Source: Bacteroidota bacterium | GTDB lineage: Bacteria > Bacteroidota > Bacteroidia > Chitinophagales > LD1 | DNA: 42,035 nt | NCBI GenBank assembly: GCA_025963485.1 | Contig: JAOQAO010000230.1 | Location: forward strand, 1-42,035 | Reading direction: 5' to 3' | Shown here: one piece after another, positions 1-41,807 of the stretch | How the letters are laid out: the number at the start of each line of letters is the position of its first letter | How positions within the stretch are numbered: position 1 is the first letter of the stretch | Notes under the pieces: model-generated | What the model was told of the DNA's origin: nothing | Seen by the model: the letters and a program-made list of their open reading frames with translations, nothing else | Database searches by the model: none | Program-made: the position numbers and the translations under genes

Positions 1-185
1 ATAATGTTGTGTTATCCTGTATTCATGAATTAATGATATCCTCTTTTTTTCTACATTACTATGTCGAGTTTTATTTAACTAAGATTTCATTCCTTTTCGT
101 TCCTCAGCCATTCTAATAGAATAAAAGCAATACACCTTGACGCAAATTTTTCGGGGAATCCAAAGGGCCTCCCTTTGGCAAGATA

Positions 186-239
186 GCATTGGAAAAGGTT
201 CATCAATATTTCAATATTGAAGTAGAACCGTTCCAATGC
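186..239. repeat. Nested inverted repeat / extended hairpin, oriT candidate
   Basis: GCATTGGAA-aa-GGTTC-at-CAATATT-tc-AATATTG-aagta-GAACC-g-TTCCAATGC; three successive paired arms. Confidence 0.7.
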
Positions 240-354
240 AATCTTGCTATGAGGCCCGTGAAGCCTGTATATTGGCTGTTATGCCTTTGGGCGCAGCCCT
301 TAAATAGCGCGCAAGGGTGTGTGCAAGCGGAACGAATCAGCATTTTGAAGGTGG

Positions 355-419
355 CCCGCCGCGAAGGCGTTAGGGCATAGTCGAAGCCTGCGAGACTATG
401 ACCGTCCTTTTGCGGCGGG
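355..419. repeat. Second nested inverted repeat (structured non-coding region)
   Basis: Outer arms CCCGCCGC/GCGGCGGG (355-362/412-419), inner arms CATAGTC/GACTATG (376-382/394-400). Confidence 0.65.
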
Positions 420-862
420 TCGAAGGTCGGCAAAGGCTGGTTCGTGTAGCGGTACATACTCTTGCTCCACTTCCCCGCTTTCAGAGGCCTTGCGGAATGA
501 AGCGGAGTGTATGCGCAGCTAACGAAGCGGAATGAGTAAGGTTTCTGAAAGCGGTCCGCATTGATGTATTGCATTTTTGCATTGGCTGTTACCTCCGCAG
601 GAAAAGCGTCCCGATAGACAGCGTAAGGGTGGGCACATGTGATTTGACCTGGCTTTATCACTCGGTCATCATATACGGAAAAAGCAGAGTATAATTCCCG
701 AAGGGCACTCTGCTTTTTCTGCATATGATACTAACAGGAAGGCGGATTAAATCCGTGTGCCTCCCTTGCTCCTTGCCGCAGCGCGGGCTGTGGGAATGAG
801 CGAATAGAGCGCAGCGCATGAGCGGAATGACACAGCGCTCGCGGCGGTGGGACGCCCCCGGG

Positions 863-1831
863 CTATAGGTCTATATCATAATCGGGTTCCACTTTTGTGT
901 CCTCGATTTCAGGTTCTTCTTCTACTTGTTCTTGGGTTACTTCGGATTTGTAGCGATCAACTTCTATATCTGAAAGTGATTCGGATCGATCTTCGATTTC
1001 GCGAGCGAGTTCCTTATTCTCTCGCTGTTCTCTAAAAGCCTGTAAGTCCTTAGCCGCCGCTTCGCGAACGTCCAAATCTTTTAAGTTAGGCTCATAGCCA
1101 ATTGTAGTAAAACGATATTTTCTATTATCACTCTCTACTCCCTGCATTTTACCGTTGCGTGAATACATGACTAATCCGGCGTCGGACAACTGTCGTATAA
1201 AATCCTCTTTGCCTAAGGACTTGGAGTAGCACAATTTGACCGCCTGTGCGATCCGTTCTTTGTCTGATGTTGTTCTAGTCCGCTTTGTCAATTGATATTC
1301 TCTTTCGCGCACCATACTTCTTTCTTTTTGTTTTTTGCCATGCGCGACGCTGCTTTGCATCAGTACTGGATATTTTGCCCTTTCATACTCCTGCATCTGT
1401 ACCTTTACAGAAGCAAAGGCCTCGCGTGAGATTCGAGTAGATCGGCCGGTTTCAATTTCAACCCCGCTAATCATAAAGTGTATATGAGGGTTTTGAGTGT
1501 TTAGGTGGGCTATGGCAATGCCCATACTCGAAGGTGCCCGCAGCTCGAAAAATTTTATAGAGAGGTCTTCGAGCATTTTCTCCGTTACCTGCGTTGGATG
1601 GATCCGGAGGCTTAGGACTTCATGATAGGCGCGAATAGCGTCATGTCTTTTAATACGTCTATTTTCCTCATTTGCTTCAAATGCTCGTATGCATTGATCA
1701 ATAGTGCCTTTTACGTTATGGCGGACAATAAGGCTTTGAGCTTTAGCATTGCTTTTTTGCCCCCTAAGCATATAGTCCGCAAGCTGTCTAAAGCTACTTG
1801 TTTTTCTCGTCATGCTCTTGATTACCGACAT
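863..1831 (-). CDS. Relaxase/mobilization nuclease
   Basis: AIAHLNTQNPHIHFMISG matches the relaxase histidine motif (HxxxxNPHxHxxxxG); charged C-terminus; overlaps the MobC-like gene. Confidence 0.85.
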   Translation of the reverse strand: MSVIKSMTRKTSSFRQLADYMLRGQKSNAKAQSLIVRHNVKGTIDQCIRAFEANEENRRIKRHDAIRAYHEVLSLRIHPTQVTEKMLEDLSIKFFELRAPSSMGIAIAHLNTQNPHIHFMISGVEIETGRSTRISREAFASVKVQMQEYERAKYPVLMQSSVAHGKKQKERSMVREREYQLTKRTRTTSDKERIAQAVKLCYSKSLGKEDFIRQLSDAGLVMYSRNGKMQGVESDNRKYRFTTIGYEPNLKDLDVREAAAKDLQAFREQRENKELAREIEDRSESLSDIEVDRYKSEVTQEQVEEEPEIEDTKVEPDYDIDL

Positions 1832-2381
1832 GTTCTTTGAGAATTGATCTTAATAATATGATTGCATCTGGATTGCGCTTGATACTCTCCTGAATAAGTT
1901 CACGGAGGCCTATCGGACTCTCTAGTACGGTTCTAATATGCTGCTCGGTTTGCTTCAATACGGTTTCTACATTTTCATAGGTTCGGTTAGTGGCAAAAAA
2001 TCCTTTTCCCTCTTTTCCTTTAATTGCATCTAACTTGTTGAAACATAGCCGAAGCACTTGCAGTATATCTGCTACAACTTCGCTATGAGGCAGGACAACA
2101 AGATTTTTCACGTCGGCTAAAGTGCAGGCACGTATATAGGCCTGTATGCTTTTATAGCTCTTTGCCTTCATTGTAGCTCTTATGCGCGTAATCTCGTCTG
2201 AAGGAAATGACATTGAAAATTGCCGTTTTTGTGCTTTTCTGGTACGTTGCATTCTCTGTCTACTGTATTCGTTCCAATATGCCTTCCGGGCAGCTTTAAT
2301 TTCTTCGTCTGTGCCGTTGGGCAATACACCGGCATCAAACAAATATTGAGACAGCCTTGAGTTTCTTTTTGAATGACGCAT
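1794..2381 (-). CDS. MobC-like relaxosome accessory protein
   Basis: Basic N-terminus, IRATMKAKSYKSIQAYIRACTL segment typical of mobilization accessory proteins, directly upstream of the relaxase. Confidence 0.65.
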   Translation of the reverse strand: MRHSKRNSRLSQYLFDAGVLPNGTDEEIKAARKAYWNEYSRQRMQRTRKAQKRQFSMSFPSDEITRIRATMKAKSYKSIQAYIRACTLADVKNLVVLPHSEVVADILQVLRLCFNKLDAIKGKEGKGFFATNRTYENVETVLKQTEQHIRTVLESPIGLRELIQESIKRNPDAIILLRSILKEHVGNQEHDEKNK

Positions 2382-2384
2382 TGC

Positions 2385-3983
2385 TTAAACGGTAAAGTGT
2401 ATAACAGTATTTGTAGGAATGCCTGGCGATGTAGCTATGGGTGTCTGCATGCGTCTCTTAAAATAAGGATGCTTGTATGCGGGTGTCAGTGTGAGCAAAG
2501 TCGGCTTATAGTTTCCGCAAATAAAAATTCCTTTGTCGGATGGCAAAGTTCTGATCTGATCGGGAGTGAGCAACTCTCGTACTCTATGGCCATGCTCGCT
2601 ATCAAATTCGTATTTTCCGAGCTCGGCTGCAACTTGTGTTGCGGTGCCATGCGCGACCCCTCCAAAGTATAAGCGACTATATGAATTGGCGATTATTGTT
2701 TGAGCTTCGCTTTGAGAATAGCAGCTATATAACTGACTCAGCGATTGGATATGCATCTGCGCACCAGAAAGAAATTTCCTACAGTTACTTATGAACAAGC
2801 CGAAATCAGGTATTGCATGAAGCGATGCAAATTCATCCAAAATCAGAAAAATGTAGTTGTCTGTTTTGGAGTTTGGTATTGCGCTCATAATAAAGCGGCT
2901 TAACTGTAGGAAGAATAAACTTATAAGCGGACTAAGAAACTTGGAATCTGCCGTAAAGCAGTTCAAAAAGATTGCAACTTTACGCGCACGGAGTTCTTGC
3001 CATTTGATTTCATCATTGCTCGTCACGAGCGCAACTGATGGCGAAGCAAAAGGTAATAGCGCAGTAAGTGCACTGGCTTGTATATTCATACGTACCTTTT
3101 CCTCGTATTTTAGGAATGATTTGTAGTCGATTATGATCTGTGGATTTCCACTGCTTGCAATTATACGGTCAACCGATTGAGGCGAAGTACTCAGAAGCTG
3201 GATTACCCTACGTACATTGGCAAAGTGGGCATACCGCTTATCACCATGCATCAGTGCGCAGGCGACTAAGCCAATTAGGCTTATCGCTGACTGTACCCAA
3301 AAGCTTTCACTGCTCTGGGGTGTCGTGGTTCGTATTAGCGTATCGGCAATTTTGTAACAGTCGTTAACGTCACAATGCGCAAGCGGATTATAAAAACTGC
3401 TTATTGACGGATCTGAAAAATTGATCCGAATGATTTTATAGCCCCTCGAAGCTAAATCGCCTGCCGTATAGGCAAAAAGCTCCCCCGAACTGTCCGAAAC
3501 ACAGAAACTAGCCTTTGCTTGAAGCAGTGACGGGATCGCCACCACTTGGCTTTTTCCTCCACCTGTCGGACTGACACAAAGCATTGACCTCGTACTGTCT
3601 TTACGACTGATCTGTTCCCTTCCTATGCAAAAGCCGTGATTAGACGTACTCAAAACAGCAGTTGCGGGTTCAAACGAAGCATGGTATGAATGGTCCGTTG
3701 ATTTTACGGATTCTATAAATGCTGTAATCGCCACTTTCAGGAAATTCATGGATTCTTCTAAAGCAGGCAGCCCCGTTTTTAGAAAAAACGTTTTTGTGAA
3801 AAGGTAGAATATTACTAATGATCGTTCGAGTTCAATAACCGCTCTATTCCAGAGTTTATTAAATTCAAGATTGAACTTAGTATTTTGCCTAGCATCAGCA
3901 ATAGAAGAAGCGTCAAATTTCCGATGGCTTTCAGAAATTGCGCCAGGACTTTCCCAATGATTGTTGCGAGATTCATTTTTCAT
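2385..3983 (-). CDS. VirD4/TraG-family type IV coupling protein
   Basis: Walker A VSPTGGGKSQ, Walker-B-like FLILDEFASL, conserved QSLSQLYSCYSQSEAQTIIANSYSRLYFGG segment. Confidence 0.9.
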   Translation of the reverse strand: MKNESRNNHWESPGAISESHRKFDASSIADARQNTKFNLEFNKLWNRAVIELERSLVIFYLFTKTFFLKTGLPALEESMNFLKVAITAFIESVKSTDHSYHASFEPATAVLSTSNHGFCIGREQISRKDSTRSMLCVSPTGGGKSQVVAIPSLLQAKASFCVSDSSGELFAYTAGDLASRGYKIIRINFSDPSISSFYNPLAHCDVNDCYKIADTLIRTTTPQSSESFWVQSAISLIGLVACALMHGDKRYAHFANVRRVIQLLSTSPQSVDRIIASSGNPQIIIDYKSFLKYEEKVRMNIQASALTALLPFASPSVALVTSNDEIKWQELRARKVAIFLNCFTADSKFLSPLISLFFLQLSRFIMSAIPNSKTDNYIFLILDEFASLHAIPDFGLFISNCRKFLSGAQMHIQSLSQLYSCYSQSEAQTIIANSYSRLYFGGVAHGTATQVAAELGKYEFDSEHGHRVRELLTPDQIRTLPSDKGIFICGNYKPTLLTLTPAYKHPYFKRRMQTPIATSPGIPTNTVIHFTV

Positions 3984-3986
3984 GTT

Positions 3987-4709
3987 TTAATCGGTTGAGT
4001 AATTAGTTAATATTTCGACTTGGGCATGATGCGCCGTGAGGATGGCTTCGAGCACCTTTGCAATTAGTAAATGCTTGCGTTCGTCTTCCCTGTTTTTAGC
4101 CTGATAGATAAAGAAGACTGTAATACCCTGTAGATTGCCTGGCATGGCTTCATTTTCGAGTTTAGAACTGACTTTGACCGGGTCTTTTTCAATTAGAGAT
4201 AAGTCATTAGCTCGATACATGGAGAACGAATCGGTATTGAGAAGAAGATCACTATAGACGTATAGCTTTTTGACCTTAGCATGACTGCTACTAAGGATAT
4301 TTAACGAACGTACAAGCGGAACGTAGATCGAAGATTGACTGCGACCTAAATCGGCTAGATATACTTTTGAAATGGCGTCTTTAAAATCACTTGTAAACTG
4401 CGCTATACTTTTTTGTCTGTTATCAGGATTTCCTAACGGTATAAATGAGGCATGAAGTGAAGCGGTCTGCACACTGTTGTAATCGAAGTCAGTGAGCGTA
4501 CTTACATGTATTTCTGCACTCCCCCATGTATGAATTTCTGCAATAGCATCGGAGAATATGGCCGAACTGTCTATCTGTTGTATGGAAGGATCGGTGATGT
4601 CTATGAGCACGTATGCTTCATATTGCGAGCTCTTATAGAAATACCATAAGCCGATTGAGAGGGCAGCACTTATTATAAGCACTGCTATAATGTATAGTGT
4701 GGTTTTCAT
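3987..4709 (-). CDS. Hypothetical membrane-anchored protein of the mobile element
   Basis: N-terminal TM helix (LYIIAVLIISAALSIGLWYFY); immediately upstream of the coupling-protein gene on the same strand. Confidence 0.6.
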   Translation of the reverse strand: MKTTLYIIAVLIISAALSIGLWYFYKSSQYEAYVLIDITDPSIQQIDSSAIFSDAIAEIHTWGSAEIHVSTLTDFDYNSVQTASLHASFIPLGNPDNRQKSIAQFTSDFKDAISKVYLADLGRSQSSIYVPLVRSLNILSSSHAKVKKLYVYSDLLLNTDSFSMYRANDLSLIEKDPVKVSSKLENEAMPGNLQGITVFFIYQAKNREDERKHLLIAKVLEAILTAHHAQVEILTNYSTD

Positions 4710-5806
4710 TTTTCAACGTTTTGATTGTTATCTGAAGGGATTTGAAATTGTCCTCGTTCGGACATTGTGAAGTGCTGATGAAAGGCATCGGGTACAATTC
4801 CGTCGGTTCTCTTGTGAACATTATGTATCCTGAACACTCCGGTCGCTTCTTCAAAGCAGGTACGCACGCGGTCAAGTAGCGTATGTTCTGCTTGCATTAT
4901 TCGTGTCTTGTTTACTGCAATAGCAGCGCGTTTTCCCTTTAGAGCACTCGCTTCAGCTTCAAGTTCGCGTATGGCAGCTTCTTGATCCTTAATCTCTTTT
5001 CGCTTTGCGTCAATTTCGAGCTGAGCCTTTTGATCAACTTCGCTTGGGTAACTCGCTAATGTAAAGAAGGCGGTGTAGCCCATAATGACTAACGTTATGA
5101 CCATAAAGAGTAATAGGAAAATGATCGGGCGATGGCCGTTAATCTCCGGCACGGAATAAAATCGCAGAGTTCCTATTGAAAGGACAATGAGCGCAAAGAG
5201 CAATACCAATAGCCGGATTGTTATCTTTGATAATGGCTTTTTTAGCTTATCACGCAGAAATACAATGACATGATGCAAACAATAGGTCTGTGCTAATGCA
5301 AGTGCAACGCCGCTTGCGATTCCCGCTAAGTATGAATCCCCTACTTGAATAAATGAGGTCGAGAAGATGAAAACCTCAATCACGAAAAGGATCGTAAGAA
5401 TGCGGCGATGCTTTTTAAGATCGTCGGTATGGATAACGTCCTTAAGCTCCCCGACTTCTATCCTGTGGATGCCTAAATCCCTTTGCATAGCAGCGCTACG
5501 CTCTCGGATTTCATTCAACTTAGTTTCTATGCCGTCTACCTCAAATGCACCAAGCATTCGCTGAATGTCGGCTTGAAATCTGCTTGTCACGTCTGTTCTT
5601 AGCTTTTGGTAAAACGCGGAGATAAAGGAGATGAAGTATTCTATTTTCTCCCCCTTTGCCGGTCTATTTGTGACTGCTAGAATTGCCGCCTGCGGCTTAA
5701 CCTTCTGTTCGATAAAATTTTCGCTTTCAGCGTCAATGTGCTTAATGGTTTCTTTAATACGGTCGTCGAGAGATGTCGAAAAACCGGTGCTTAATTGAGT
5801 ACTCAT
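4706..5806 (-). CDS. Hypothetical multi-TM protein with coiled coil
   Basis: Three to four predicted TM segments plus coiled coil (KAQLEIDAKRKEIKDQEAAIRELEAEASALKGKRAAI); start codon region overlaps the next gene by 4 nt. Confidence 0.6.
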   Translation of the reverse strand: MSTQLSTGFSTSLDDRIKETIKHIDAESENFIEQKVKPQAAILAVTNRPAKGEKIEYFISFISAFYQKLRTDVTSRFQADIQRMLGAFEVDGIETKLNEIRERSAAMQRDLGIHRIEVGELKDVIHTDDLKKHRRILTILFVIEVFIFSTSFIQVGDSYLAGIASGVALALAQTYCLHHVIVFLRDKLKKPLSKITIRLLVLLFALIVLSIGTLRFYSVPEINGHRPIIFLLLFMVITLVIMGYTAFFTLASYPSEVDQKAQLEIDAKRKEIKDQEAAIRELEAEASALKGKRAAIAVNKTRIMQAEHTLLDRVRTCFEEATGVFRIHNVHKRTDGIVPDAFHQHFTMSERGQFQIPSDNNQNVEK

Positions 5807-6024
5807 GATTGTTTTTTATTGTTTTTTAAATGAGCTCAGATTCAAAGGACGAGAATTAGACAAAGCAGTAGCTATTGGTCTACTATTGTATTAGTTTACC
5901 ATCCTATCTTTTTCTTTCAAGTGAATGAGATTTTGGGATAGTGTCTATCCAGGATCAAATCGGGATGCATATATGCTTACTACCGATTTAGGGAACTTAC
6001 GTGAGTATGATATATTGTACATTA

Positions 6025-6303
6025 CTAATATTGGGGTTTGATGTTTTTCTTTATATAGTCTTCAACTGATAGTCTTGAGTACAGGATGGTTTTTGAGTTA
6101 ATACGGCTTATAGTCAATTGCCCTGTGTCACGAAGCGTCTGAATCGTGCTTTTACTTGAGACCTTCAACAGCTGCATTACCTCCTGTATATCTATCCATT
6201 CTTCGCGCCTAAGAGCAATCCTTTTCTCAATATGGTTGATGATCATATCAGCCAAAACCTCCATTTGCAGTTGATCTAAGTATAATATTTGTTTAGATTC
6301 CAT
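6025..6303 (-). CDS. Helix-turn-helix DNA-binding protein (excisionase/MerR-like)
   Basis: WIDIQEVMQLLKVSSKSTIQTLRDTGQLTISRINSKTILYSRLSVEDYIKK resembles HTH_17-type domains. Confidence 0.75.
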   Translation of the reverse strand: MESKQILYLDQLQMEVLADMIINHIEKRIALRREEWIDIQEVMQLLKVSSKSTIQTLRDTGQLTISRINSKTILYSRLSVEDYIKKNIKPQY

Positions 6304-6307
6304 ATAG

Positions 6308-6508
6308 TTATTTATCTAGGGTTGTATCATAAGCGGTATCCTTTTCGGATTCGATCTCATATAAATAGGCCAACAAGTGCCGTTGCTGTTCTCGTAATAC
6401 TATTTCTGCAAGACTTTGCTCTTTGGCGGGGTGATTCAGATTATCCTCAAGCAGAGTTATCTGATCTTGCGCACTGATTTGAACTTCGGGAGTAGGTGGG
6501 TGTATCAT
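6308..6508 (-). CDS. Small hypothetical protein
   Basis: 66-aa ORF directly upstream of the HTH gene on the same strand, short spacing. Confidence 0.4.
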   Translation of the reverse strand: MIHPPTPEVQISAQDQITLLEDNLNHPAKEQSLAEIVLREQQRHLLAYLYEIESEKDTAYDTTLDK

Positions 6509-6679
6509 TGCTTAATCATTTTGCCTTTAATGAATAAGTCAACGACCGATAGGATACACTTGTTGAATATTAATTTATCATATATAATACTCTCGAAGGT
6601 TATCGTTCTTTACCATTAAGAGGGGCAGTTTGGCGACTGTTTTTTTAACCCCTAATATGGCACCAGTCATTAACCTTTC

Positions 6680-6706
6680 CCCTAAGCTTTCGCTTAGGGT
6701 GTTTTC
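6680..6706. terminator. Hairpin terminator-like element
   Basis: CCCTAAGC-tttc-GCTTAGGG followed by TGTTTT. Confidence 0.6.
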
Positions 6707-6888
6707 ATTGGGTAATAGTTCCATCTCTTGATGTACAAAATTATACTTAATTTTTCTTTAAAATTTAAAAATTAACAGATTATTTTTATTGTTAAGGTAA
6801 AAATTAAGTTAATAATTAAGCTGTTCGTTGTTTTCTAATCTAATGATTGGTACTTTTACAAGTCCGAAAAGCATAATGTGGAAGATAA

Positions 6889-7809
6889 ATGAAAGGTAAT
6901 CTCACCTTAGACGTCAAGGAGCTTAGGAATTTGAGGGAGGCAGTGATAGCATCATATTGTACTAGTAAAAGAGTGCCCCCCGATAAAGCGCTTAAAGGCT
7001 TTAATTCCAATTTGAAAAACTATGTTCCTCTCATTGAAGATATACAAAAGCATGTTGGCTATATAGGCTCCAAGCCGCTGGCGGTTCTTTTACATTTTTC
7101 AAAATATGGTGATATACAACCTTACGCCTTTCGGAAAAGCATAGTTGATACTTTAACTAAATATGCTTACGGGATTTCCGCTGATGATTTTTTAGCTCGG
7201 GAACAAGCACAAGTTGACAGGGCCTCCGCTCAGGCGCTAGCGAATATTGTAGGTTATTGGGAGTGTTATTATGACAAAGACGGGACTTTTCAGGAAATGC
7301 TTAAAAGAACCGGCCAAGCCCAAATTAGTGTTTTGGCTTTAACTATCCGGATGACGAATTCAGGACAGGCTGAGGCAAAATTTTATCATCCAAAAAGCGT
7401 CGGCGTTGGTTCGTTTGAGATACAGGGAGGTAATATTATTTTACATTTAAGAAACGAAAGAAACTTAGAACCGACTTTCATGATAATGAATTGTGGGAGG
7501 GCCATAGATGATTTTCTTGATCACGTTCCATTTTTAGTGGGTTATTTTTTGCATATTAACCGTTTCGCTAATCCAAAGGCGGCAAAATGTCTGATGATTT
7601 ACGACGAACAAAAAAAAGATGTTGATTTTGCAGATCCACAATTCCGTGAGGCATTTAGGAACAAAAGAATACTGAAAATGGAAAATGATAAGGTAGCATT
7701 AAATCGAATAAAAGACTTTTTTGCATCCGGCTTAAACACACTAACGATGAACGTAAATGATTTTATTGGTAAAGAAGATAAATATAAAAATGACACAAGC
7801 AGCAAATAA
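6889..7809 (+). CDS. Hypothetical protein (306 aa), first gene of the cargo operon
   Basis: Long ORF with coding character; overlaps the next short ORF by 20 nt. Confidence 0.75.
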   Translation: MKGNLTLDVKELRNLREAVIASYCTSKRVPPDKALKGFNSNLKNYVPLIEDIQKHVGYIGSKPLAVLLHFSKYGDIQPYAFRKSIVDTLTKYAYGISADDFLAREQAQVDRASAQALANIVGYWECYYDKDGTFQEMLKRTGQAQISVLALTIRMTNSGQAEAKFYHPKSVGVGSFEIQGGNIILHLRNERNLEPTFMIMNCGRAIDDFLDHVPFLVGYFLHINRFANPKAAKCLMIYDEQKKDVDFADPQFREAFRNKRILKMENDKVALNRIKDFFASGLNTLTMNVNDFIGKEDKYKNDTSSK

Positions 7810-7915
7810 CATTCAGCAAGAAAAAGAGTTGTTATCTAAGGAGATTGTTGAAATTTCATTCACTCCTATTCTTTTTGTTATAAGAAGCATGGAGACGTAT
7901 GAAGGAGAAGTATAA
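7790..7915 (+). CDS. Candidate 41-aa small protein or peptide (possible modification substrate)
   Basis: My translation: MTQAANNIQQEKELLSKEIVEISFTPILFVIRSMETYEGEV*. Overlaps the upstream ORF end (20 nt) and the downstream ORF start (17 nt). Not in the supplied ORF track. Confidence 0.4.
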   Translation: MTQAANNIQQEKELLSKEIVEISFTPILFVIRSMETYEGEV

Positions 7916-8903
7916 TGTCAATGAGACTCCTTTTTTAGATAGCAGTCTTTTTACGGCATTGCCCGCAGGTGACAATGCCGAAATTTTATTTTTTGAATAC
8001 CGCAAGCTCGTGTTATTAAATATGCTTGGTTATTTGAAAAGCATTCAGAATGCACTGGATATTGACATATCTTTCATAATTAATAAGTACGAGATACTTG
8101 ACCCTCGCAAAAAATTTTCACCAGCCTTGTTTGAATTATTTTCCAAGTTGCCTATCGTCGCGAAACAAGGCGCTGTACCCGCAATCATAGATGTACTCCA
8201 TCGTTTAAATTGCCTAACAGAGCATGATATTTTTGATGCACAATGTAGGGTTTCGACAATTCTGACTGAAAATTGGGAAACAGAGTTTGTTTACAAGTTG
8301 CGTAATGAAGATATTCCATCAAAGAGTGGTAGCAAGATTCTAATATTGCCTATACTTACCCCGAACATAAGTACTTATTCGGAAATGCTCTCAGACTTAA
8401 AAGACGAGATAGCTGCCGTCGATAGTGGGTTTAACTCAGAGATAAGTGCATTTGTTACTCGATTGAAAATGTTTAACGGCAGAGCGCTCAAAGCATCCAC
8501 TTCTGCTTCAGTATTTGGAGCTATTTATTTAAATACCCCACCCCAAGATGAAAATGCACAGGCCTATTTTGCAGACCACATTATTCACGAAACTTCGCAT
8601 TTATGCTTGGATATATTGCTCGCATTTGACCGACTTATTCTGAATGATGAATCAGAAAAATTCGAAGCTCCTATACGAATAGATCCACGCCCTATGTTTG
8701 GCATCTTTCATGCAACTTTTGTACTCAGTAGAATGATACGATTATTCCAAAAAATAGCTAACAATAGAACTGAATATTTGGACAGGCTTGAGTTATTTAA
8801 GGCGCAATTTGATAAGGGTATCGACACTATTGAAAAGCACGCCCGGCTTACTGAAAATGGAGAAAGGGTAAAGGACTCATTTGCTAAAGTAATTAAGGCG
8901 TAA
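7899..8903 (+). CDS. HExxH-motif protein, putative 2-oxoglutarate-type peptide beta-hydroxylase (mod_HExxH-like)
   Basis: HIIHETSHLCLDILLAFDRL followed by EAPIRIDPRPMFGIFHATFVLSRMIRLF, the arrangement I associate with HEXXH-motif peptide-modification proteins. Confidence 0.65.
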   Translation: MKEKYNVNETPFLDSSLFTALPAGDNAEILFFEYRKLVLLNMLGYLKSIQNALDIDISFIINKYEILDPRKKFSPALFELFSKLPIVAKQGAVPAIIDVLHRLNCLTEHDIFDAQCRVSTILTENWETEFVYKLRNEDIPSKSGSKILILPILTPNISTYSEMLSDLKDEIAAVDSGFNSEISAFVTRLKMFNGRALKASTSASVFGAIYLNTPPQDENAQAYFADHIIHETSHLCLDILLAFDRLILNDESEKFEAPIRIDPRPMFGIFHATFVLSRMIRLFQKIANNRTEYLDRLELFKAQFDKGIDTIEKHARLTENGERVKDSFAKVIKA

Positions 8904-9075
8904 AGCGCGTTTCTTCATTGCGTGTTTTTAGTTTATTTCATTTTCCTGCCTATTGTACTCAGCGCATTATCTTCTGTACTTTTAATAAGCTGCAATCACT
9001 ATGGTAGATTTCTTATCTTTATGTTCATTCATTCACAACACCAAGTTTGCTTGTGCAATGCTTGTGCAAATAGAA

Positions 9076-32660: not shown

Positions 32661-32735
32661 ATAAAATCGCCGTTCACTGAAGAGGCATCCCTGTATATCG
32701 GTATTTACTAAGGCTTTATACAGATAATGCGAAGG
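32661..32735 (+). promoter_or_regulatory. Upstream repeat P, copy A
   Basis: Aligns to copy B at 35294-35372: ATAAAATC-C-CGTTCACTGAA...GGTAT-TT--TAAGG--TTAT-C-GATAATG-CGA. Confidence 0.6.
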
Positions 32736-32757
32736 CGAGGTGCAAACTTTACTCACG

Positions 32758-32833
32758 AAATCAAAAACAGCGCACACCGAAAAGCTGCGAATCAGAGTAG
32801 GTACCGGGAAGCCGAAAACGGATCAGAGTAGGC
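32758..32833 (+). repeat. Leader repeat R1
   Basis: 76 nt nearly identical to R2 (one substitution, one 1-nt indel); ends 15 nt before the collar-like gene start. Confidence 0.9.
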
Positions 32834-32848
32834 GAAAAAAATACAACT

Positions 32849-33355
32849 ATGTCTTACACAAAAGGAAGTATGCCAATAGGCACTATCGTTTCGTCTTTTT
32901 TGAATTCAGACCAGTTCAAACGCGCGGTGAGGGTCACAGGTGACTGGGATGATCAGAGCGAATGGAATCCATGTGATGGCCGCTTGGCTGGCAATTCAGA
33001 ATATAAAAAACTATCAGATCGAGTCAATGTGCCTGATTTGAGAGGGGTGTTTTTAAGGTGTGTAAACACCATAGACCCATCCAATCAGACGCACATACCT
33101 GATGGCCAGAAAAATGATGAGGAACCAGCCTTTGGGGTTTTACAGAAGGACGCATTTCAGATACATGCCCATGCCTACACAGGACGCCACCTGGAGGCCG
33201 ATGGCGGTGGCGGATTCAATGGTTCCGGGTTTGATTCAAATTCCAATCACAATGGTGCATGGGAGGGTGGATACACATCTTCCAATAGTGGTCAGAGCAA
33301 ATTTGAAACGAGACCGAAAAATCTCTCTGTGTTTTACTACATCAAGATCAATTGA
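32849..33355 (+). CDS. Phage tail collar/fiber-like protein
   Basis: MPIGTIVSSFLN...WNPCDGRLAGNSEYKKLSDRVNVPDLRGVFLRCVN collar-like segment; C-terminal RPKNLSVFYYIKIN. Confidence 0.75.
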   Translation: MSYTKGSMPIGTIVSSFLNSDQFKRAVRVTGDWDDQSEWNPCDGRLAGNSEYKKLSDRVNVPDLRGVFLRCVNTIDPSNQTHIPDGQKNDEEPAFGVLQKDAFQIHAHAYTGRHLEADGGGGFNGSGFDSNSNHNGAWEGGYTSSNSGQSKFETRPKNLSVFYYIKIN

Positions 33356-33397
33356 TCGGGCAAAAACTGCATTAAAACGAACACGTCTTTACCCGTT

Positions 33398-33472
33398 AAA
33401 TCAAAACAGCGCACACCGAAAAGCTGCAAATCAGAGTAGGTACCGGGAAGCCGAAAACGGATCAGAGTAGGC
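33398..33472 (+). repeat. Leader repeat R2
   Basis: Near-identical copy of R1; ends 23 nt before the 79-aa gene start. Confidence 0.9.
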
Positions 33473-33495
33473 ATAAAATAGTTAATTATATAATT

Positions 33496-33735
33496 ATGGG
33501 AATCTCAGGAGGAATTTCGATCACGATTAGAAATGTTGAACTTTTGCCAACATCGGAAGTAGATTTAAGGTCTTTGATCACAACTAATATCAGCGAAGCA
33601 ATATTAGAGAGAGTTCAGCAGTTGCAGGCATTAAATGCTAAAGGTGCAGCAGCTATACCAGCCTCAAAAGCTGCTGATGTTGTTTTGAACGACAGAGGTG
33701 TCGAGGTAGGAATAAGTGTAGGAGTACATTTCTAA
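33496..33735 (+). CDS. Small protein (79 aa)
   Basis: ORF preceded by R2 and followed by a hairpin terminator. Confidence 0.6.
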   Translation: MGISGGISITIRNVELLPTSEVDLRSLITTNISEAILERVQQLQALNAKGAAAIPASKAADVVLNDRGVEVGISVGVHF

Positions 33736-33747
33736 GACTAACCCTGT

Positions 33748-33788
33748 AACCAGTCAGTCGTGCCATAAGGTATTGCTGACTGGTTTTA
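33748..33788 (+). terminator. Hairpin (terminator or attenuator) between the 79-aa gene and the caspase gene
   Basis: AACCAGTCAG-N18-CTGACTGGTT, perfect 10-bp stem, followed by TTT. Confidence 0.6.
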
Positions 33789-33801
33789 AAAAAAATATAT
33801 T

Positions 33802-34584
33802 ATGAAGAAAGCCTTATTGGTGGGGATTAATAAATATCAGAATCCCAATTTTGCGCTTAGAGGATGTTTGAATGATGTAGCGAGTTTTAAATCTCTTCTT
33901 ACAGACGTTTACTCCTTTCAGAATGACAACATAAAAATCCTGCAGGACGGAGATGCGACCAAAGCGAATATTCTGTGGGAGCTGGATAAACTTATTGCAG
34001 AAGCTGCCGTCGGGGATACTTTGATCTTCGGCTACAGCGGCCACGGAACGCAATATGGCACCGACCCATCCCAACCCAATGGGAAAAATGATGCTATCGT
34101 CACTTATAGTTCAGATCTCGCCGGACTTATCCAGGACAAAGAACTGTATGCTCACATTACAGTACGTGGTGATGATTTTTTACAAAAAGTAAGTTTTACT
34201 GGTGTTTATGATTGTTGTCACTCGGGTACTATGATCAAAGATTTTCGGCTAGATGCTTCCGGGAAGTTTATTTTGGACCCAACTTTGAATAGGTGTGTTT
34301 TTTTACCGGAAATAGCAAATAAATTGGGAACTAGGGAGGTACTCATGGGGCCATATAATACTTTCTCCGCTTGTTTAGATGAACAAACTGCTGCGGACTT
34401 GTCTGTCGGAGGTACTTTCAGAGGAGCATTTAGTTATGTACTACATGACTTGCTCAGAGCCAATCCTAATGCTAGAATAAATGATCTTGACAATTTGATT
34501 TTACCTGGTATCCAAAGGATCACCAGCCATTTGCAAGTGCCCAATTACTATGCTGTAGACATAACGAAAAGTGTATTTCAATAA
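33802..34584 (+). CDS. Caspase-family (peptidase C14-like) protease
   Basis: ALLVGINKYQNPNFALRGCLNDV; His motif LIFGYSGHGTQ; Cys motif GVYDCCHSGT. Confidence 0.9.
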   Translation: MKKALLVGINKYQNPNFALRGCLNDVASFKSLLTDVYSFQNDNIKILQDGDATKANILWELDKLIAEAAVGDTLIFGYSGHGTQYGTDPSQPNGKNDAIVTYSSDLAGLIQDKELYAHITVRGDDFLQKVSFTGVYDCCHSGTMIKDFRLDASGKFILDPTLNRCVFLPEIANKLGTREVLMGPYNTFSACLDEQTAADLSVGGTFRGAFSYVLHDLLRANPNARINDLDNLILPGIQRITSHLQVPNYYAVDITKSVFQ

Positions 34585-34602
34585 TTATTTAAAAATGAAA
34601 AA

Positions 34603-34824
34603 ATGCCAAACAACAAATTCATCGTGGACTTTGGTCCATTCCAATTGACTGAGGAGCAACGCAACAAAATTGATTCTGAAATTCAAAAAACGGTTACCAC
34701 AGTGATCACAGAATTCAAATTTCAAAAGAAAATTAAATTTTCTGGTATAAGTGAATTTGAAAAAGGACCTGATGGAGGCTTCACTGGAGGGTTTAGAGCG
34801 GCAGAAATCGAACATGCCGATTAA
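34603..34824 (+). CDS. Small protein (73 aa) downstream of the caspase
   Basis: Same strand, 18-nt gap after the caspase gene; strand-helix-like sequence. Confidence 0.6.
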   Translation: MPNNKFIVDFGPFQLTEEQRNKIDSEIQKTVTTVITEFKFQKKIKFSGISEFEKGPDGGFTGGFRAAEIEHAD

Positions 34825-34874
34825 CCTGCCCGTTTTTCATTGCTAATCTTATTGATTACTTCAAGATTTACAAT

Positions 34875-35291
34875 ATGAATTTGACAGACGAAGATATTTT
34901 ACTGTGTCCATCTCATACGTATATACCTGGCGTAAAATTGATAGGGATACGCAATGATGACGGAACGGTTTCCATTCTACCTGAGGCATTGGAGGTCCCC
35001 TCCGACTTTTATCAAAAATGTGAATCAAATGGTTTTAAACCGGAAGAGCGTTTTCGTTTTACGGATGTATGCAAGGAATCAGGTTGTAAAAATTGGAATA
35101 AAGGGAGATGTGGAGTGTCAGATACAATATTAGAGTTTAAGGATAGCACCGGAGTCGATAGAAACTCCACTCACTGTTCAATCAGGTCTCAATGCCGGTG
35201 GTTCAGTCAAAATGGATTTGATGCTTGTAGAATGTGTAAGTATATTATCACATATGTAAGTGAATCGGATGCTACAGCGCTATCTCCATAA
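34875..35291 (+). CDS. Cys-rich protein (putative Zn or Fe-S binding)
   Basis: VCKESGCKNWNKGRCG ... HCSIRSQCRWFSQNGFDACRMC. Confidence 0.65.
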   Translation: MNLTDEDILLCPSHTYIPGVKLIGIRNDDGTVSILPEALEVPSDFYQKCESNGFKPEERFRFTDVCKESGCKNWNKGRCGVSDTILEFKDSTGVDRNSTHCSIRSQCRWFSQNGFDACRMCKYIITYVSESDATALSP

Positions 35292-35293
35292 TG

Positions 35294-35372
35294 TATAAAA
35301 ATCCAGCGTTCACTGAAACCATATACCTATAAAAGGGTATATTTTAAGGGGTTATGCTGATAATGTGCGAGG
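35294..35372 (+). promoter_or_regulatory. Upstream repeat P, copy B
   Basis: See copy A; lies upstream of the LuxR-type HTH gene. Confidence 0.6.
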
Positions 35373-35412
35373 ATCTGCTAAGATTTAGTGAAGATCATCA
35401 AACCTATACCTT

Positions 35413-35640
35413 ATGAATGAACCCAAAACCCTCCAAGACATTCTTACTCAACGGGAAACAGAGATCCTGATTCTAATTGCTCAAGGGTTGGGATCGAAAC
35501 AAATTGCTGCCCAATTGGAAATTAGTGAAAATACAGTAGCCAATCACCGCAAAAACATGCTATCAAAAGCGCAAGCTAGTAGCAGTGCTGAACTTATATA
35601 TCTATATAACAATAATTATTATATAAAAAATAGCCATTAA
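35413..35640 (+). CDS. Stand-alone LuxR/GerE-type HTH regulator
   Basis: LTQRETEILILIAQGLGSKQIAAQLEISENTVANHRKNMLSK. Confidence 0.9.
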   Translation: MNEPKTLQDILTQRETEILILIAQGLGSKQIAAQLEISENTVANHRKNMLSKAQASSSAELIYLYNNNYYIKNSH

Positions 35641-35692
35641 AAGCCATTTTTTATATGTTGTCAAAAGACAAATTTTACGTTTAAAGCAGCGA

Positions 35693-35720
35693 ATGCCGAA
35701 AAGCTGAAAAAGAGTAGGTA
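35693..35720 (+). repeat. Leader repeat R3 (shorter, diverged)
   Basis: AAAGCAGCGAATGCCGAAAAGCTGAAAAAGAGTAGG; keeps the CAGC...GCTG stem and AGAGTAGG of R1/R2; ends 17 nt before the next gene. Confidence 0.7.
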
Positions 35721-35737
35721 GAAAAAAAATATAAATT

Positions 35738-37057
35738 ATGATACAACAATTCTTAAAACCATTAATAGGGTCTTATCTTTTTTTACTACTATTTTTAACT
35801 AAGGCAATAGCACAAGATTGTGACAAGGTGTTGAGTGATGGTGTTTTCAATACCACATCCATCAATTCAAGTACAGATATATCAAAAGCTTTTAATGAAT
35901 ATATCTACAGTTCAGATTTTTCGAGCCATCAGCAAGCAATTGATGCAGGACTATCCGTTGGGACTGTTGTATATGGCGTACCTCTACAAATTGGGGGCAC
36001 ATTTAGTAAGCAGCAAAAAGATCAATGGAGGAGTACGCACCAACAGTATAAGAATGAAACATTAAATAGTTCTCAAAAATATAGTGCCTTATTTAAGTAT
36101 GCTTCTTCAGATATTTTAGATGCTTGGACAACATGTCAATTTAATGCCAGCGCATCAAAAGTGGGTCTATATGGGTGGCTACAGGAGGTTAGTCCATCCG
36201 CCTCCATTTTGCACTTAACATGGTTGCCAATGGCGGGTGATGGCGGAGCGCCTCCCAAAGTGACCAACAGTTCTATCTCTGGGGGGTATAGATCCGACAA
36301 TATAAACAGCCCTGTATTGCCTAACGGCTATATTTTATTGCAAGGTGCAAATGGTAATCTTGTAGGTATAACAAGAAAACCCAATGAAGATTTGGTTGTA
36401 ATAGTCAACACCTCAAGAGGAGATATTCCATGCTATTTAAAAGCTTATCCGAAGCCATCCATTATAAATTTCTCTTCTACCTCTGCCAATATAAATTTTG
36501 GAGAATCAGCAACATTGTCGTGGACTACCAATAGAGCAACTCAAGTGTCTATAAACAATAATATTGGAAATGTTCAACCCAATGGAAGTACAGTTGTTTC
36601 ACCACAATTAACAACAACGTACAAAATTACAGCCACAAACACTAGCGGTACAATTAATGGATTCACCACAATAAATGTCATACCTCTTCCGCCTACACTG
36701 ACTAGTGGGAGCGTTTCATTTCGTACTACCGATAACGATAAAGATGATAACACAAATGTATCTGTTTTTATTAAGTCTGGAGGCAATACAGTAGCCAACT
36801 GGTCAGGAAGTGATGGGCATTGGAATGATAATTCGGATCATGGTCCATATGGATTATCCATAATCAATCATATTAGGAAAGATCAATTAATAGGACCAGG
36901 CCAGGCAGTATTAGTTGAGGCACCCACAGGTCATGACGAGTGGCATTTCAATTGGTCTGTAACTTTAAATTTCTCGGATGGCTCGTCAAAAAGATATGAT
37001 TGGGGCGGTGGCAATGTCGATCACGATAGAACTACTATCACCCAGCCGCTACCATAG
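35738..37057 (+). CDS. Secreted protein with Ig-like domain and a His/Asp-rich C-terminal domain
   Basis: Signal peptide ending KAIAQ; PSIINFSSTSANINFGESATLSWTTNRATQVSINNNIG...TYKITATNTSGT Ig-like segment. No T9SS domain recognised. Confidence 0.65.
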   Translation: MIQQFLKPLIGSYLFLLLFLTKAIAQDCDKVLSDGVFNTTSINSSTDISKAFNEYIYSSDFSSHQQAIDAGLSVGTVVYGVPLQIGGTFSKQQKDQWRSTHQQYKNETLNSSQKYSALFKYASSDILDAWTTCQFNASASKVGLYGWLQEVSPSASILHLTWLPMAGDGGAPPKVTNSSISGGYRSDNINSPVLPNGYILLQGANGNLVGITRKPNEDLVVIVNTSRGDIPCYLKAYPKPSIINFSSTSANINFGESATLSWTTNRATQVSINNNIGNVQPNGSTVVSPQLTTTYKITATNTSGTINGFTTINVIPLPPTLTSGSVSFRTTDNDKDDNTNVSVFIKSGGNTVANWSGSDGHWNDNSDHGPYGLSIINHIRKDQLIGPGQAVLVEAPTGHDEWHFNWSVTLNFSDGSSKRYDWGGGNVDHDRTTITQPLP

Positions 37058-37087
37058 TAATTGTGTAAATATTAATTGCAAGAACTC

Positions 37088-37102
37088 TGACGAAATTCGT
37101 CA
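37088..37102. promoter_or_regulatory. Perfect palindrome upstream of the metzincin gene
   Basis: TGACGAA-a-TTCGTCA. Confidence 0.4.
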
Positions 37103-37132
37103 ATTATATGTAATGTGATATATATAATCAAC

Positions 37133-38131
37133 ATGAAAAATATTCTAATAATATTTTTAACTACTTGTCTTTTTGGAGTAGTTAATGCACAGGTCAATAA
37201 TCGAGTTATCGATACTTGTACGAATATTCTAAATCCTAAGGACCCAAAACAGATAAAACATTTTCCGTGGCGTCTTCCAGATTGGATTTGGAATAATGGT
37301 CAACTTAATCCATATATAACTGAAGATCAAAAGGCGGAGGAGATAAAAAAAATAGAAATCTTGCGAAAATGGAATCAAGAAAGCTACCCATCAGCTGATT
37401 CACTTGAGGATGTCATTGCTCATGATTTGGGTAGCAAATTTTCGTTGATAGACTTATCGCGACAAGGCAAAAACTATATGAATGTTGGGAATGGCTTTAA
37501 TTTAAGCCTACTTTTAGATCCAGCGTTTGAAGTGGATTTCTCTCAAACTATAAATAAAGCTGCCTCCGCCTTTCTTGAAATCGCATTAAGTGAGAGAGTC
37601 TTGCAAGAAGCGTTTGATAGTGCAATTTTGGAACTCACCCCTAAAACAGAGATGTATGAGATTGCAACTACTAGTCATAAGCAAAAATATACCAAAGCTT
37701 ATCTAAACGAAATAAGATGGCGGATTAAGCCTTCATCTATTGAGGGATTTAAACAACAGATTAAAAACGCCTTAAGTACAGAAAATGGCGATCCTGCTTT
37801 ACTGATTATTACATCTGGTAATATGCCTCCATGGTGGGGTTGGTCATATTTGAATTACTTCTATGACCCAAACCAAAGTCTAAAGCGATTGGCGCCTCCT
37901 CATAACTATATATATATAGAGTTTAATACAGATAGTTTTTCAACCAATAAAAGTGTAGCTTTCTGGACGTCAAAAATAGCACATGAACTTTTACATAATT
38001 TGGGCTATTTGCACCCTGTTTATAAATGTCCCCATGAAAGAGACATTAATAATATTGGCAAAAATAAAGCTTTCATTATAGCTTATGAACGGGCAATATG
38101 GAAGAGAGCAAAAGAATTAAATTTGGAATAG
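37133..38131 (+). CDS. Secreted metzincin-type zinc metalloprotease
   Basis: Signal peptide MKNILIIFLTTCLFGVVNAQ; IAHELLHNLGYLHP (HExxHxxGxxH). ORF track starts at 37115 (GTG); ATG at 37133 preferred. Confidence 0.75.
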   Translation: MKNILIIFLTTCLFGVVNAQVNNRVIDTCTNILNPKDPKQIKHFPWRLPDWIWNNGQLNPYITEDQKAEEIKKIEILRKWNQESYPSADSLEDVIAHDLGSKFSLIDLSRQGKNYMNVGNGFNLSLLLDPAFEVDFSQTINKAASAFLEIALSERVLQEAFDSAILELTPKTEMYEIATTSHKQKYTKAYLNEIRWRIKPSSIEGFKQQIKNALSTENGDPALLIITSGNMPPWWGWSYLNYFYDPNQSLKRLAPPHNYIYIEFNTDSFSTNKSVAFWTSKIAHELLHNLGYLHPVYKCPHERDINNIGKNKAFIIAYERAIWKRAKELNLE

Positions 38132-40286: not shown

Positions 40287-41807
40287 ATGGGATGGAAAGC
40301 CACCATAGCCCGATGGGCAGCCAATATCATAGTGCCGCGCATATACCGCGAGCATCGGGATGCCATAGCTATCCAGGAGAGAATATTGGCACAGCTGATA
40401 TCCAAAGCCACAGGCACTCAGTTCGGCAGGGAGCATGACTTCAAAGGGATAAAGTCATACAAAGATTTTCGCGTAGCAGTACCTATACGCGACTATGAGG
40501 GCATCAGGCACTACATAGAGATGATCGCCAAGGGGAAAGAAGATGTCCTCTGGCCAGGCCTGCCACTCTATTTTTGCAAATCATCCGGCACTACGTCAGG
40601 TGTCAAATATATTCCTCTTACCAAAATCTCTATCAACTCCCAGATCACAGCAGCACGAAATTCGCTGCTCATGTATGTGCATGAGACTGGCATCTCTGAT
40701 TTCTTTGACCTTAAAATGATCTTCCTGCAGGGCTCACCTGTACTCGATAAGCATGGTGTGATACCGAGCGGCCGCCTCAGCGGTATCGTCTATCATCATG
40801 TGCCTGCTTATCTGACTAAGAACCGCATGCCATCCTATGATACCAACTGTATAGAGGATTGGGAAGAAAAAGTAGAAGCGATCGCAAAAGAAACACTGAA
40901 AGAGAAGATGTCCCTTATCAGTGGTATTCCACCCTGGGTCGTGATGTACTTTGAGAAGCTGATCGAGCTGACAGGCAAGAAACATATAAAAGATATATTC
41001 CCTGATTTCTCGGTATTCGCCTATGGCGGGGTCAACTACGAGCCATATCGTGCTAAGATCGAAAACCTGATAGGTCGCAAGGTGGCAAGTATAGAAACAT
41101 ATCCGGCTAGTGAAGGCTTCATAGCCTATCAGGATTCGCAGCGGGAGAAAGGGCTACTGCTGAATGTAAACGGAGGAATCTTCTATGAGTTCATCAAGCC
41201 AGAAGATATAGGGAGCGGTCCATCTAAACGCATCTCCATTGCCGATGTGGAGATAGGGGTCAACTATGCCCTCATTCTAAATACAGATGCTGGCCTTTGG
41301 GCATATAACATAGGAGATACCATCCGCTTCGTGTCAAAGGCTCCTTATCGCATCATAGTGACCGGTCGTATATCACATTATATATCCGCCTTCGGCGAAC
41401 ATGTGATAGGAGAGGAGGTAGAATATGCGCTCATGCGCGCTGCATCGGAGAATGATGTATCTGTGAGCGAATTTACCGTAGCGCCGCAAGTAGATACCGC
41501 TGAGGGTATACTGCCATATCATGAGTGGTTCGTCGAGTTCGCGAAAGCCCCATCAGATATCAGGTCATTTGAAGCAAAGGTCGATCAGTATATGCAGGAG
41601 AAAAATGTCTACTACAAAGACCTCCGCGATGGCAATATCCTCCAGCAGCTAAGGATCCGCTCATTAGCACAAGGCAGCTTCGTCAGTTACATGAAAAGCC
41701 TCGGCAAGCTCGGCGGACAAAACAAAGTTCCTCGCCTTAGCAATGACAGAAAAGTAGCGACAGCATTGATAGAAATACAAGGACGGATATTTACTGACGA
41801 AAACTAA
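40287..41807 (+). CDS. GH3 auxin-responsive promoter family protein (acyl-acid-amido synthetase-like)
   Basis: FCKSSGTTSGVKYIPLT adenylate-binding motif; YPASEGFIAYQ; ALILNTDAGLWAYNIGDTIRFVS. Confidence 0.88.
   Translation: MGWKATIARWAANIIVPRIYREHRDAIAIQERILAQLISKATGTQFGREHDFKGIKSYKDFRVAVPIRDYEGIRHYIEMIAKGKEDVLWPGLPLYFCKSSGTTSGVKYIPLTKISINSQITAARNSLLMYVHETGISDFFDLKMIFLQGSPVLDKHGVIPSGRLSGIVYHHVPAYLTKNRMPSYDTNCIEDWEEKVEAIAKETLKEKMSLISGIPPWVVMYFEKLIELTGKKHIKDIFPDFSVFAYGGVNYEPYRAKIENLIGRKVASIETYPASEGFIAYQDSQREKGLLLNVNGGIFYEFIKPEDIGSGPSKRISIADVEIGVNYALILNTDAGLWAYNIGDTIRFVSKAPYRIIVTGRISHYISAFGEHVIGEEVEYALMRAASENDVSVSEFTVAPQVDTAEGILPYHEWFVEFAKAPSDIRSFEAKVDQYMQEKNVYYKDLRDGNILQQLRIRSLAQGSFVSYMKSLGKLGGQNKVPRLSNDRKVATALIEIQGRIFTDEN

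What the first reader, a model, noticed from the sequence alone, without database searches (positions are those of the whole stretch)
32661..38131. Accessory island pairing a caspase-like protease with a collar-like protein, small proteins, a Cys-rich protein, a LuxR-HTH regulator and two secreted proteins
Seen: seven or eight same-strand genes between the nifU-like gene and atpD, AT-richer than the flanks, with shared non-coding repeats upstream of several of them. Established: C14 proteases with the His/Cys dyad cut proteins; collar domains are found in phage tail fibres; HExxHxxGxxH marks metzincins. Inference: a co-regulated system in which the caspase may process the adjacent small proteins or the collar-like protein, with secreted effectors downstream. 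Function is unknown to me; defence, toxin or phage-derived roles are all open.
Basis: partly seen in the sequence, partly recalled or inferred. Interest (0 to 1): 0.8.

Follow-up and report, generated by a model that had tools for sequence, protein, structure and literature searches.

The report
Hairpin-led accessory gene hotspot with caspase
Between two housekeeping genes this bacterium carries a swap-in gene block, headed by copies of one small RNA hairpin and a tiny regulator, that includes a caspase-like protease and an undescribed pair of small proteins also found near peptide-antibiotic genes in other bacteria.

Summary
The block is real: eight same-strand ORFs at 32849-38131, 38% G+C against 48-49% in the flanks. 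The 'shared non-coding repeats' are the known Rfam family RF02914 (DUF805b RNA): three good copies, two followed by a degenerate tandem copy. In related genomes, 95 such sites show a covarying stem and mostly lie about 20 nt before a start codon, usually of an exported protein. The nifU-like/atpD interval is a hotspot: congeners carry different cargo there (lysozyme plus astacin; LuxR solo plus ATP-grasp peptide cassette), often again with DUF805b hairpins. A short LuxR-HTH 'solo' sits beside DUF805b-led genes at 5 of the 6 places where its subfamily occurs. The pair itself is conserved (12 of 12 loci in the order, once DUF805b-led). Cys-rich homologues elsewhere lie beside NHLP, PatA or FxsB-type RiPP genes and match no Pfam or NCBIfam model tested. 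Most likely this is a co-regulated accessory locus with cargo that turns over; what the caspase cuts is unknown.

The parts
32671..32729 (+). 59-nt repeat (copy 1), upstream of the collar unit; possible promoter/operator region, function unknown
   Evidence: 71% identical to 35307-35365; only two places in the own assembly match its ends
32767..32803 (+). DUF805b RNA hairpin (first of a tandem pair), leader of the collar gene
   Evidence: RF02914, 34.2 bits, E=6.6e-7, gathering score 35.6
32804..32834 (+). degenerate second DUF805b hairpin of the tandem pair
   Evidence: RF02914, 18.5 bits, E=0.13; same tandem arrangement at L063, L244 and others
32849..33355 (+). tail-collar-like protein, 168 aa, no signal peptide
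   Evidence: phrog_523 E=6.9e-10; Pfam Collar E=0.021 only
33406..33442 (+). DUF805b RNA hairpin (first of a tandem pair), leader of the four-gene unit
   Evidence: RF02914, 34.2 bits, E=6.6e-7; 91% identical to the first copy over 87 nt
33443..33473 (+). second DUF805b hairpin of the tandem pair
   Evidence: RF02914, 20.9 bits, E=0.021
33496..33735 (+). 79-aa small protein (s79), orphan
   Evidence: no family; only a stop-interrupted E=0.007 match in 299 genomes
33802..34584 (+). C14 caspase/metacaspase-like protease, 260 aa, stand-alone domain
   Evidence: PF00656 2.1e-18; nearest solved structures are metacaspases, 6.5e-19
34603..34824 (+). 73-aa small protein (s73), first gene of a conserved pair
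   Evidence: s73-like ORF 5' of the Cys-rich gene in 12 of 12 loci of the order
34875..35291 (+). Cys-rich protein, 138 aa (Cys138), second gene of the pair; seven invariant cysteines
   Evidence: alignments A1 and A5; 12 of 399 order genomes and plasmids of other phyla
35307..35365 (+). 59-nt repeat (copy 2), upstream of the LuxR-solo gene
35413..35640 (+). LuxR-type HTH solo, 75 aa, DNA-binding domain only
   Evidence: GerE 3.8e-19; subfamily next to DUF805b at 5 of 6 loci
35686..35720 (+). DUF805b RNA hairpin, best copy, leader of the exported-protein unit
   Evidence: RF02914, 44.8 bits, E=1.7e-10, above gathering score
35738..37057 (+). exported 439-aa protein with an Ig-like segment
   Evidence: signal-peptide-like N-terminus; phrog_2155 over residues 217-314, 1.6e-14
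37115..38131 (+). exported metzincin-like HExxHxxGxxH protein (ATG at 37133 preferred)
   Evidence: motif at residue 290 of the 37115 frame; no Pfam match

Best explanation
The nifU-like/atpD interval is a genus-wide hotspot whose accessory genes turn over. In this genome the cargo is four units: collar; s79-caspase-s73-Cys138; LuxR solo; and two exported proteins. Three of the four begin with the DUF805b hairpin leader close before the start codon. Shown: the hotspot, the RNA family, its covarying stem and fixed position, the recurring LuxR-solo neighbour, and the conserved s73-Cys138 pair. Inferred mechanism: the LuxR solo controls transcription of the locus, and the hairpin in the 5' UTR is read by a trans-acting factor (protein or small RNA, unknown) that gates translation or stability of every leader-bearing mRNA, so the units act as one regulon with other, mostly exported, DUF805b-led proteins of the cell. 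The products most likely work in envelope-facing interaction or antagonism. The caspase, a metacaspase-type enzyme (so probably cutting after Arg/Lys), would act within its own operon by processing or switching a small partner (s79 or s73/Cys138). This last step is the weakest.
For: Rfam hits. DUF805b in 28 of 30 family genomes and 0 of 14 controls. 76 of 95 sites have an ATG ORF within 30 nt, against 2 of 95 reading the other way and 12% at random positions. Stem 85% paired against 47% in shuffles, covariation score 0.80 against 0.19, and lower in every slid register. DUF805b-led proteins signal-like 53/69 against 186/497 neighbours; 16 of 76 carry a T9SS sorting tail. Same interval with different cargo in G002-G006, with DUF805b in G003 and G004 and a tandem pair in G005. 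LuxR solo beside DUF805b-led genes at window, C48, G002, G005, G025. DUF805b directly before s73-Cys138 in another family, 41.1 bits. DUF805b directly before a caspase in G011.
Against: No expression data; co-regulation is inferred from a shared leader. The two tandem leaders in the window score just under the Rfam gathering cut-off. The tandem leader's minimum-energy fold is not two clean hairpins, and neither leader is more stable than shuffles. The next LuxR-solo relatives (74 bits and below) have no DUF805b nearby, and most DUF805b sites have no solo nearby. In G005 the tandem hairpins were seen by eye and did not pass cmscan at E 0.05. The sites counted for covariation were found with a model that already contains the stem. 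No cleavage of s79, s73 or Cys138 could be tested.
Confidence: 0.6

Rival explanations
1. A caspase-based antiphage/abortive-infection system: infection activates the C14 protease, which cuts a neighbour or cell proteins and stops growth; the other genes are sensors or regulators.
For: PADLOC 'caspase' model E=1.3e-20. Another DUF805b-led caspase in the family heads a caspase / Endonuclease_NS / papain operon, similar to published caspase-nuclease (canu) loci (PMC12799240). Patchy distribution and hotspot location.
Against: No nuclease, NTPase, TIR or STAND gene recognised in the window block. EACC1-type caspase model scores 42.9 against a cut-off of 140. Other hotspot cargo is not defence-like (lysozyme, astacin, exported proteins).
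Confidence: 0.2
2. s73-Cys138 is part of a peptide (RiPP-like) production or handling system, and the caspase is the processing protease.
For: Cys138 homologues sit by NHLP export genes (Spirosoma), an NHLP/Nif11/SagB cluster (Nostoc), a YhhB/FxsB-like radical SAM maturase (Polymorphobacter) and a PatA maturation protease with several small ORFs (G214). The same hotspot in G005 holds a 68-aa Cys-tailed peptide plus an MvdD/RimK ATP-grasp.
Against: No maturase or exporter recognised in the window. The s73 C-terminus is not more variable than its N-terminus (27.5% against 28.9% mean pairwise identity), unlike a leader/core peptide. Most chromosomal pairs in the order have no obvious RiPP gene beside them.
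Confidence: 0.2
3. The hairpin is a DNA element: the binding site of the LuxR solo, or a cassette recombination site that shuffles hairpin-plus-gene units, and not an RNA regulator.
For: Near-identical 87-nt copies before unrelated genes. Array of near-identical hairpins before different genes in G007. LuxR solo as neighbour.
Against: Covarying stem with free sequence, fixed strand and distance to the start codon, no recombinase gene recognised in the block. Most DUF805b sites lack a solo nearby.
Confidence: 0.12
4. Remnant of a phage or contractile injection device (collar-like fibre plus secreted effectors).
For: Tail-collar fold of gene 1.
Against: No baseplate, sheath or integrase gene was recognised among the eight; one weak phage match (E=6e-4). 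The collar in the related G025 cluster is only distantly similar.
Confidence: 0.04

Closest known systems
DUF805b RNA (Rfam RF02914, cis-reg, clan CL00115)
   Same: Sequence, hairpin and position 5' of genes; one copy above and two just under the curated cut-off.
   Different: Here it leads a collar gene, a caspase operon and an exported-protein unit next to a LuxR solo, and two leaders are tandem pairs. No paper held mentions DUF805b, so whether these links are described elsewhere is open.
Caspase-nuclease (canu) antiphage loci (PMC12799240)
   Same: C14 protease in a variable accessory locus; the G011 relative has caspase plus Endonuclease_NS.
   Different: No nuclease in the window, and the window caspase is a bare 260-aa domain without the Ig-like fold described for the prototype.
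EACC1-caspase two-gene system (PMC7159879; NF047832)
   Same: Small-protein gene 5' of a caspase gene; weak domain similarity (42.9 bits).
   Different: Far below the 140-bit cut-off; the paper gives EACC1 a TM helix and the caspase variable C-terminal domains, whereas s79 has no evident TM segment and the window caspase no extension.
Metacaspases (PDB 4f6o, 9n3d and others)
   Same: Best solved relatives (6.5e-19); SGHG and DCCHSG motifs.
   Different: Shorter than these chains; Ca dependence and Arg/Lys preference not tested.
Accessory proteins of RiPP clusters (NHLP, PatA, FxsB/YhhB neighbourhoods)
   Same: Cys138 homologues lie in such neighbourhoods in Spirosoma, Nostoc, Polymorphobacter and G214.
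   Different: No maturase or exporter in the window; Cys138 matched no NCBIfam model and no Pfam model in the three members tested.

Membership tests
DUF805b RNA RF02914 | Covariance-model score above 35.6 bits | tested here: met
   35686-35720 at 44.8 bits; the two tandem leaders 34.2, slightly under
DUF805b RNA RF02914 | Covarying short stem around a conserved loop, 5' of a coding gene | tested here: met
DUF805b RNA RF02914 | Acts as RNA in cis | not testable with these tools
   needs reporter or RNA-seq
Caspase superfamily, C14 | PF00656 above cut-off with His/Cys motifs | tested here: met
   67.3 bits against 21.4; SGHG and DCCHSG
EACC1-caspase system | NF047832 above cut-off | tested here: not met
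   42.9 against 140
Canu (caspase-nuclease) | Gated nuclease gene downstream of the caspase | tested here: not met
   no nuclease among the eight ORFs by Pfam; present in the G011 relative
Phage tail collar (PF07484) | Above Pfam cut-off | tested here: not met
   15.2 against 24; phrog_523 6.9e-10, so collar-like only
Metzincin metalloprotease | HExxHxxGxxH plus Met-turn and a metzincin profile | tested here: inconclusive
   motif present; no Pfam match; AlphaFold model too poor, pLDDT 35
LuxR-type solo | GerE HTH without receiver or ligand domain | tested here: met
   75 aa, GerE residues 9-63
RiPP cluster | Precursor plus maturase or dedicated exporter in the locus | tested here: not met
   none in the window by Pfam/NCBIfam; present around some Cys138 homologues
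Known defence system (PADLOC) | Complete set of components | tested here: not met
   only the single caspase component matches

The most novel reading that the evidence does not exclude
A two-part switch (short LuxR solo plus DUF805b hairpin leader) is a general entry module for a hotspot of interaction genes, and s73-Cys138 is an undescribed protein module, with Cys138 spread over at least four phyla, that works with proteases or peptide maturases, here with a caspase: a bacterial peptide-handling system gated by an orphan RNA motif.
Probability: 0.15. Interest if true: 0.8.

Novelty: new variant of a known kind. Interest (0 to 1): 0.5.

Why it matters
DUF805b is an orphan RNA motif. A recurring regulator gene beside it, its consistent place just before start codons and its bias to exported proteins make its role directly testable. 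The hotspot offers natural replacements of cargo behind the same leader. The s73-Cys138 pair is a conserved module without a family model in the libraries searched, and the appearance of Cys138 in RiPP neighbourhoods of several phyla gives a concrete lead for a missing part of such pathways.

Tried and rejected
Prophage or injection device: only the collar gene looks phage-like. EACC1 system: below cut-off. s79 as a paralogue of s73: no profile match. s73 as a classical leader/core RiPP precursor: no conservation contrast. The 59-nt repeat as a general element: only two copies in this assembly, and not seen before the other LuxR solos. DUF805b before other caspases of the order: none in 16 loci searched, so the caspase link rests on the window and G011. 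Structure prediction of Cys138 and the HExxH protein from single sequences: useless (pLDDT 37 and 35), so no fold search was run. Weak PDB profile hits of Cys138 (interleukin-17, glycoprotein D; E 0.04 or worse) taken as chance. Cys138 in viral contigs: none. The paper that I recall as describing the DUF805 motifs is not in the library.
Full report
Observation. Eight + strand ORFs fill the interval between a nifU-like gene and atpD. The block has 38.3% G+C against 47.7% and 48.9% on its sides. Gaps between genes fall into two classes: 18-66 nt inside s79-caspase-s73-Cys138 and between the two exported genes, and 97-140 nt at the unit borders. Every unit border holds a hairpin, a 59-nt repeat, or both.

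What the repeats are. cmscan identifies them as RF02914, DUF805b RNA. The copy before the exported-protein unit scores 44.8 bits, above the curated 35.6. The leaders of the collar gene and of s79 score 34.2, and each is followed by a degenerate second copy. The two tandem leaders are 91% identical over 87 nt.

How general this is. In 30 genomes of the family the motif occurs in 28, and in none of 14 control genomes. I collected 95 sites with flanks. An ATG ORF begins within 30 nt of 76 of them; reading the other way this is true for 2, and at random positions for 12%. In 40 distinct hairpins all four stem pairs change on both sides, 85% of cells pair (47% in shuffles), and sliding the register destroys the signal. 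The sites were found with a model that contains the stem, so this confirms more than it discovers. Energy folding of the window leaders is unremarkable. Proteins behind the hairpin are signal-like in 53 of 69 cases against 186 of 497 neighbours (a crude rule, and related sequences are not corrected for), and 16 of 76 carry a T9SS sorting tail.

Hotspot. atpD of six congeners is 89-96% identical to the window's. Upstream of it G004 has a GH25 lysozyme, an astacin and a DUF805b-led exported protein; G005 has a LuxR solo, a tandem-hairpin leader, a 68-aa Cys-tailed peptide and an ATP-grasp enzyme; G003 has a DUF805b-led 381-aa protein; G006 and G002 have other genes. The G002 and G003 contigs end near or inside the interval, so their content is partial. 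The caspase, s79, s73 and Cys138 were not found in any congener; some of these assemblies are incomplete.

LuxR solo. A profile of five solos finds six places above 112 bits in the family and nothing else above 74. Five of the six lie beside DUF805b-led genes (window, C48, G002, G005, G025); G020 does not. The profile was built from those five, so the score gap is partly by construction; the link was first seen as physical adjacency in loci that had been chosen for DUF805b, and the independent part of the evidence is that the search found few members elsewhere.

The caspase. It is a bare C14 domain closest to metacaspases. Another DUF805b-led caspase, in G011, heads a caspase / Endonuclease_NS / papain operon, which resembles published caspase-nuclease loci (PMC12799240) and the multi-peptidase NucA theme (PMC7159879). 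The window has no nuclease, so this is a resemblance of the relative only. Sixteen other caspase loci of the order had no DUF805b.

The conserved pair. Cys138 occurs in 12 of 399 genomes of the order, and in each an s73-like ORF lies just 5' of it; in L221 and L222 it was read from the DNA, and in L222 its start lies in a run of N. In G074, another family, the pair is led by a 41.1-bit DUF805b hairpin. Neighbours vary: thermolysin plus emfourin in G074, a HExxH exported protein in G052, a PatA protease with several small ORFs in G214. Plasmid homologues of Cys138 lie by NHLP export genes, an NHLP/Nif11/SagB cluster, a YhhB/FxsB-like maturase, a C1 peptidase and CHAT/M28/M20 genes. None of these 17 loci encodes a caspase relative in the stretch read. 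Seven cysteines are invariant in 16 sequences. NCBIfam gives no family for any of the 16, and Pfam none for the three tested. The contexts suggest peptide handling; s73 itself does not show a leader/core pattern.

Conclusion. Shown: the anatomy, the RNA family, the hotspot and the conserved pair. Supported by association only: the LuxR solo as partner of DUF805b, and the export bias. Inferred: translation-level gating, and caspase action inside its operon.

Noticed in passing
L131 (G011:C11:156400-166400), 2251-4969: DUF805b-led operon of caspase, DNA/RNA non-specific endonuclease and papain-like protease; looks like a caspase-nuclease defence locus.
   Followed up: partly
L124 (G025:C49), 14-9067: LuxR solo followed by four DUF805b-led units: 105-aa membrane protein, calcineurin-like phosphoesterase, tail-collar protein, DUF4347-like protein; then a PLD protein.
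   Followed up: partly
L224 (G214:C51), 3275-8079: PatA-family cyanobactin maturation protease (685 bits), several 76-96 aa MKLP-type small ORFs, then the s73-Cys138 pair.
   Followed up: no
L149 (G007:C7:17300-36900): Array of six DUF805b hairpins, nearly identical, each before a different gene.
   Followed up: no
L120, L123, L135, L169, L170 (and L128, L133, L148): In the first five, the DUF805b hairpin follows a terminator-like stem-loop plus T-run by only about 20 nt, leaving little room for an ordinary promoter; in the last three it follows a TAnnTTTG-like -7 element directly (seen by eye).
   Followed up: no
L063 (G000:C48), 3118-5647: Second LuxR solo plus tandem DUF805b leader before a 718-aa protein in the same genome.
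   Followed up: partly
window 40287-41807: GH3-like (auxin-responsive promoter family) ORF after the ATP synthase epsilon gene; named from memory of the family, not searched.
   Followed up: no
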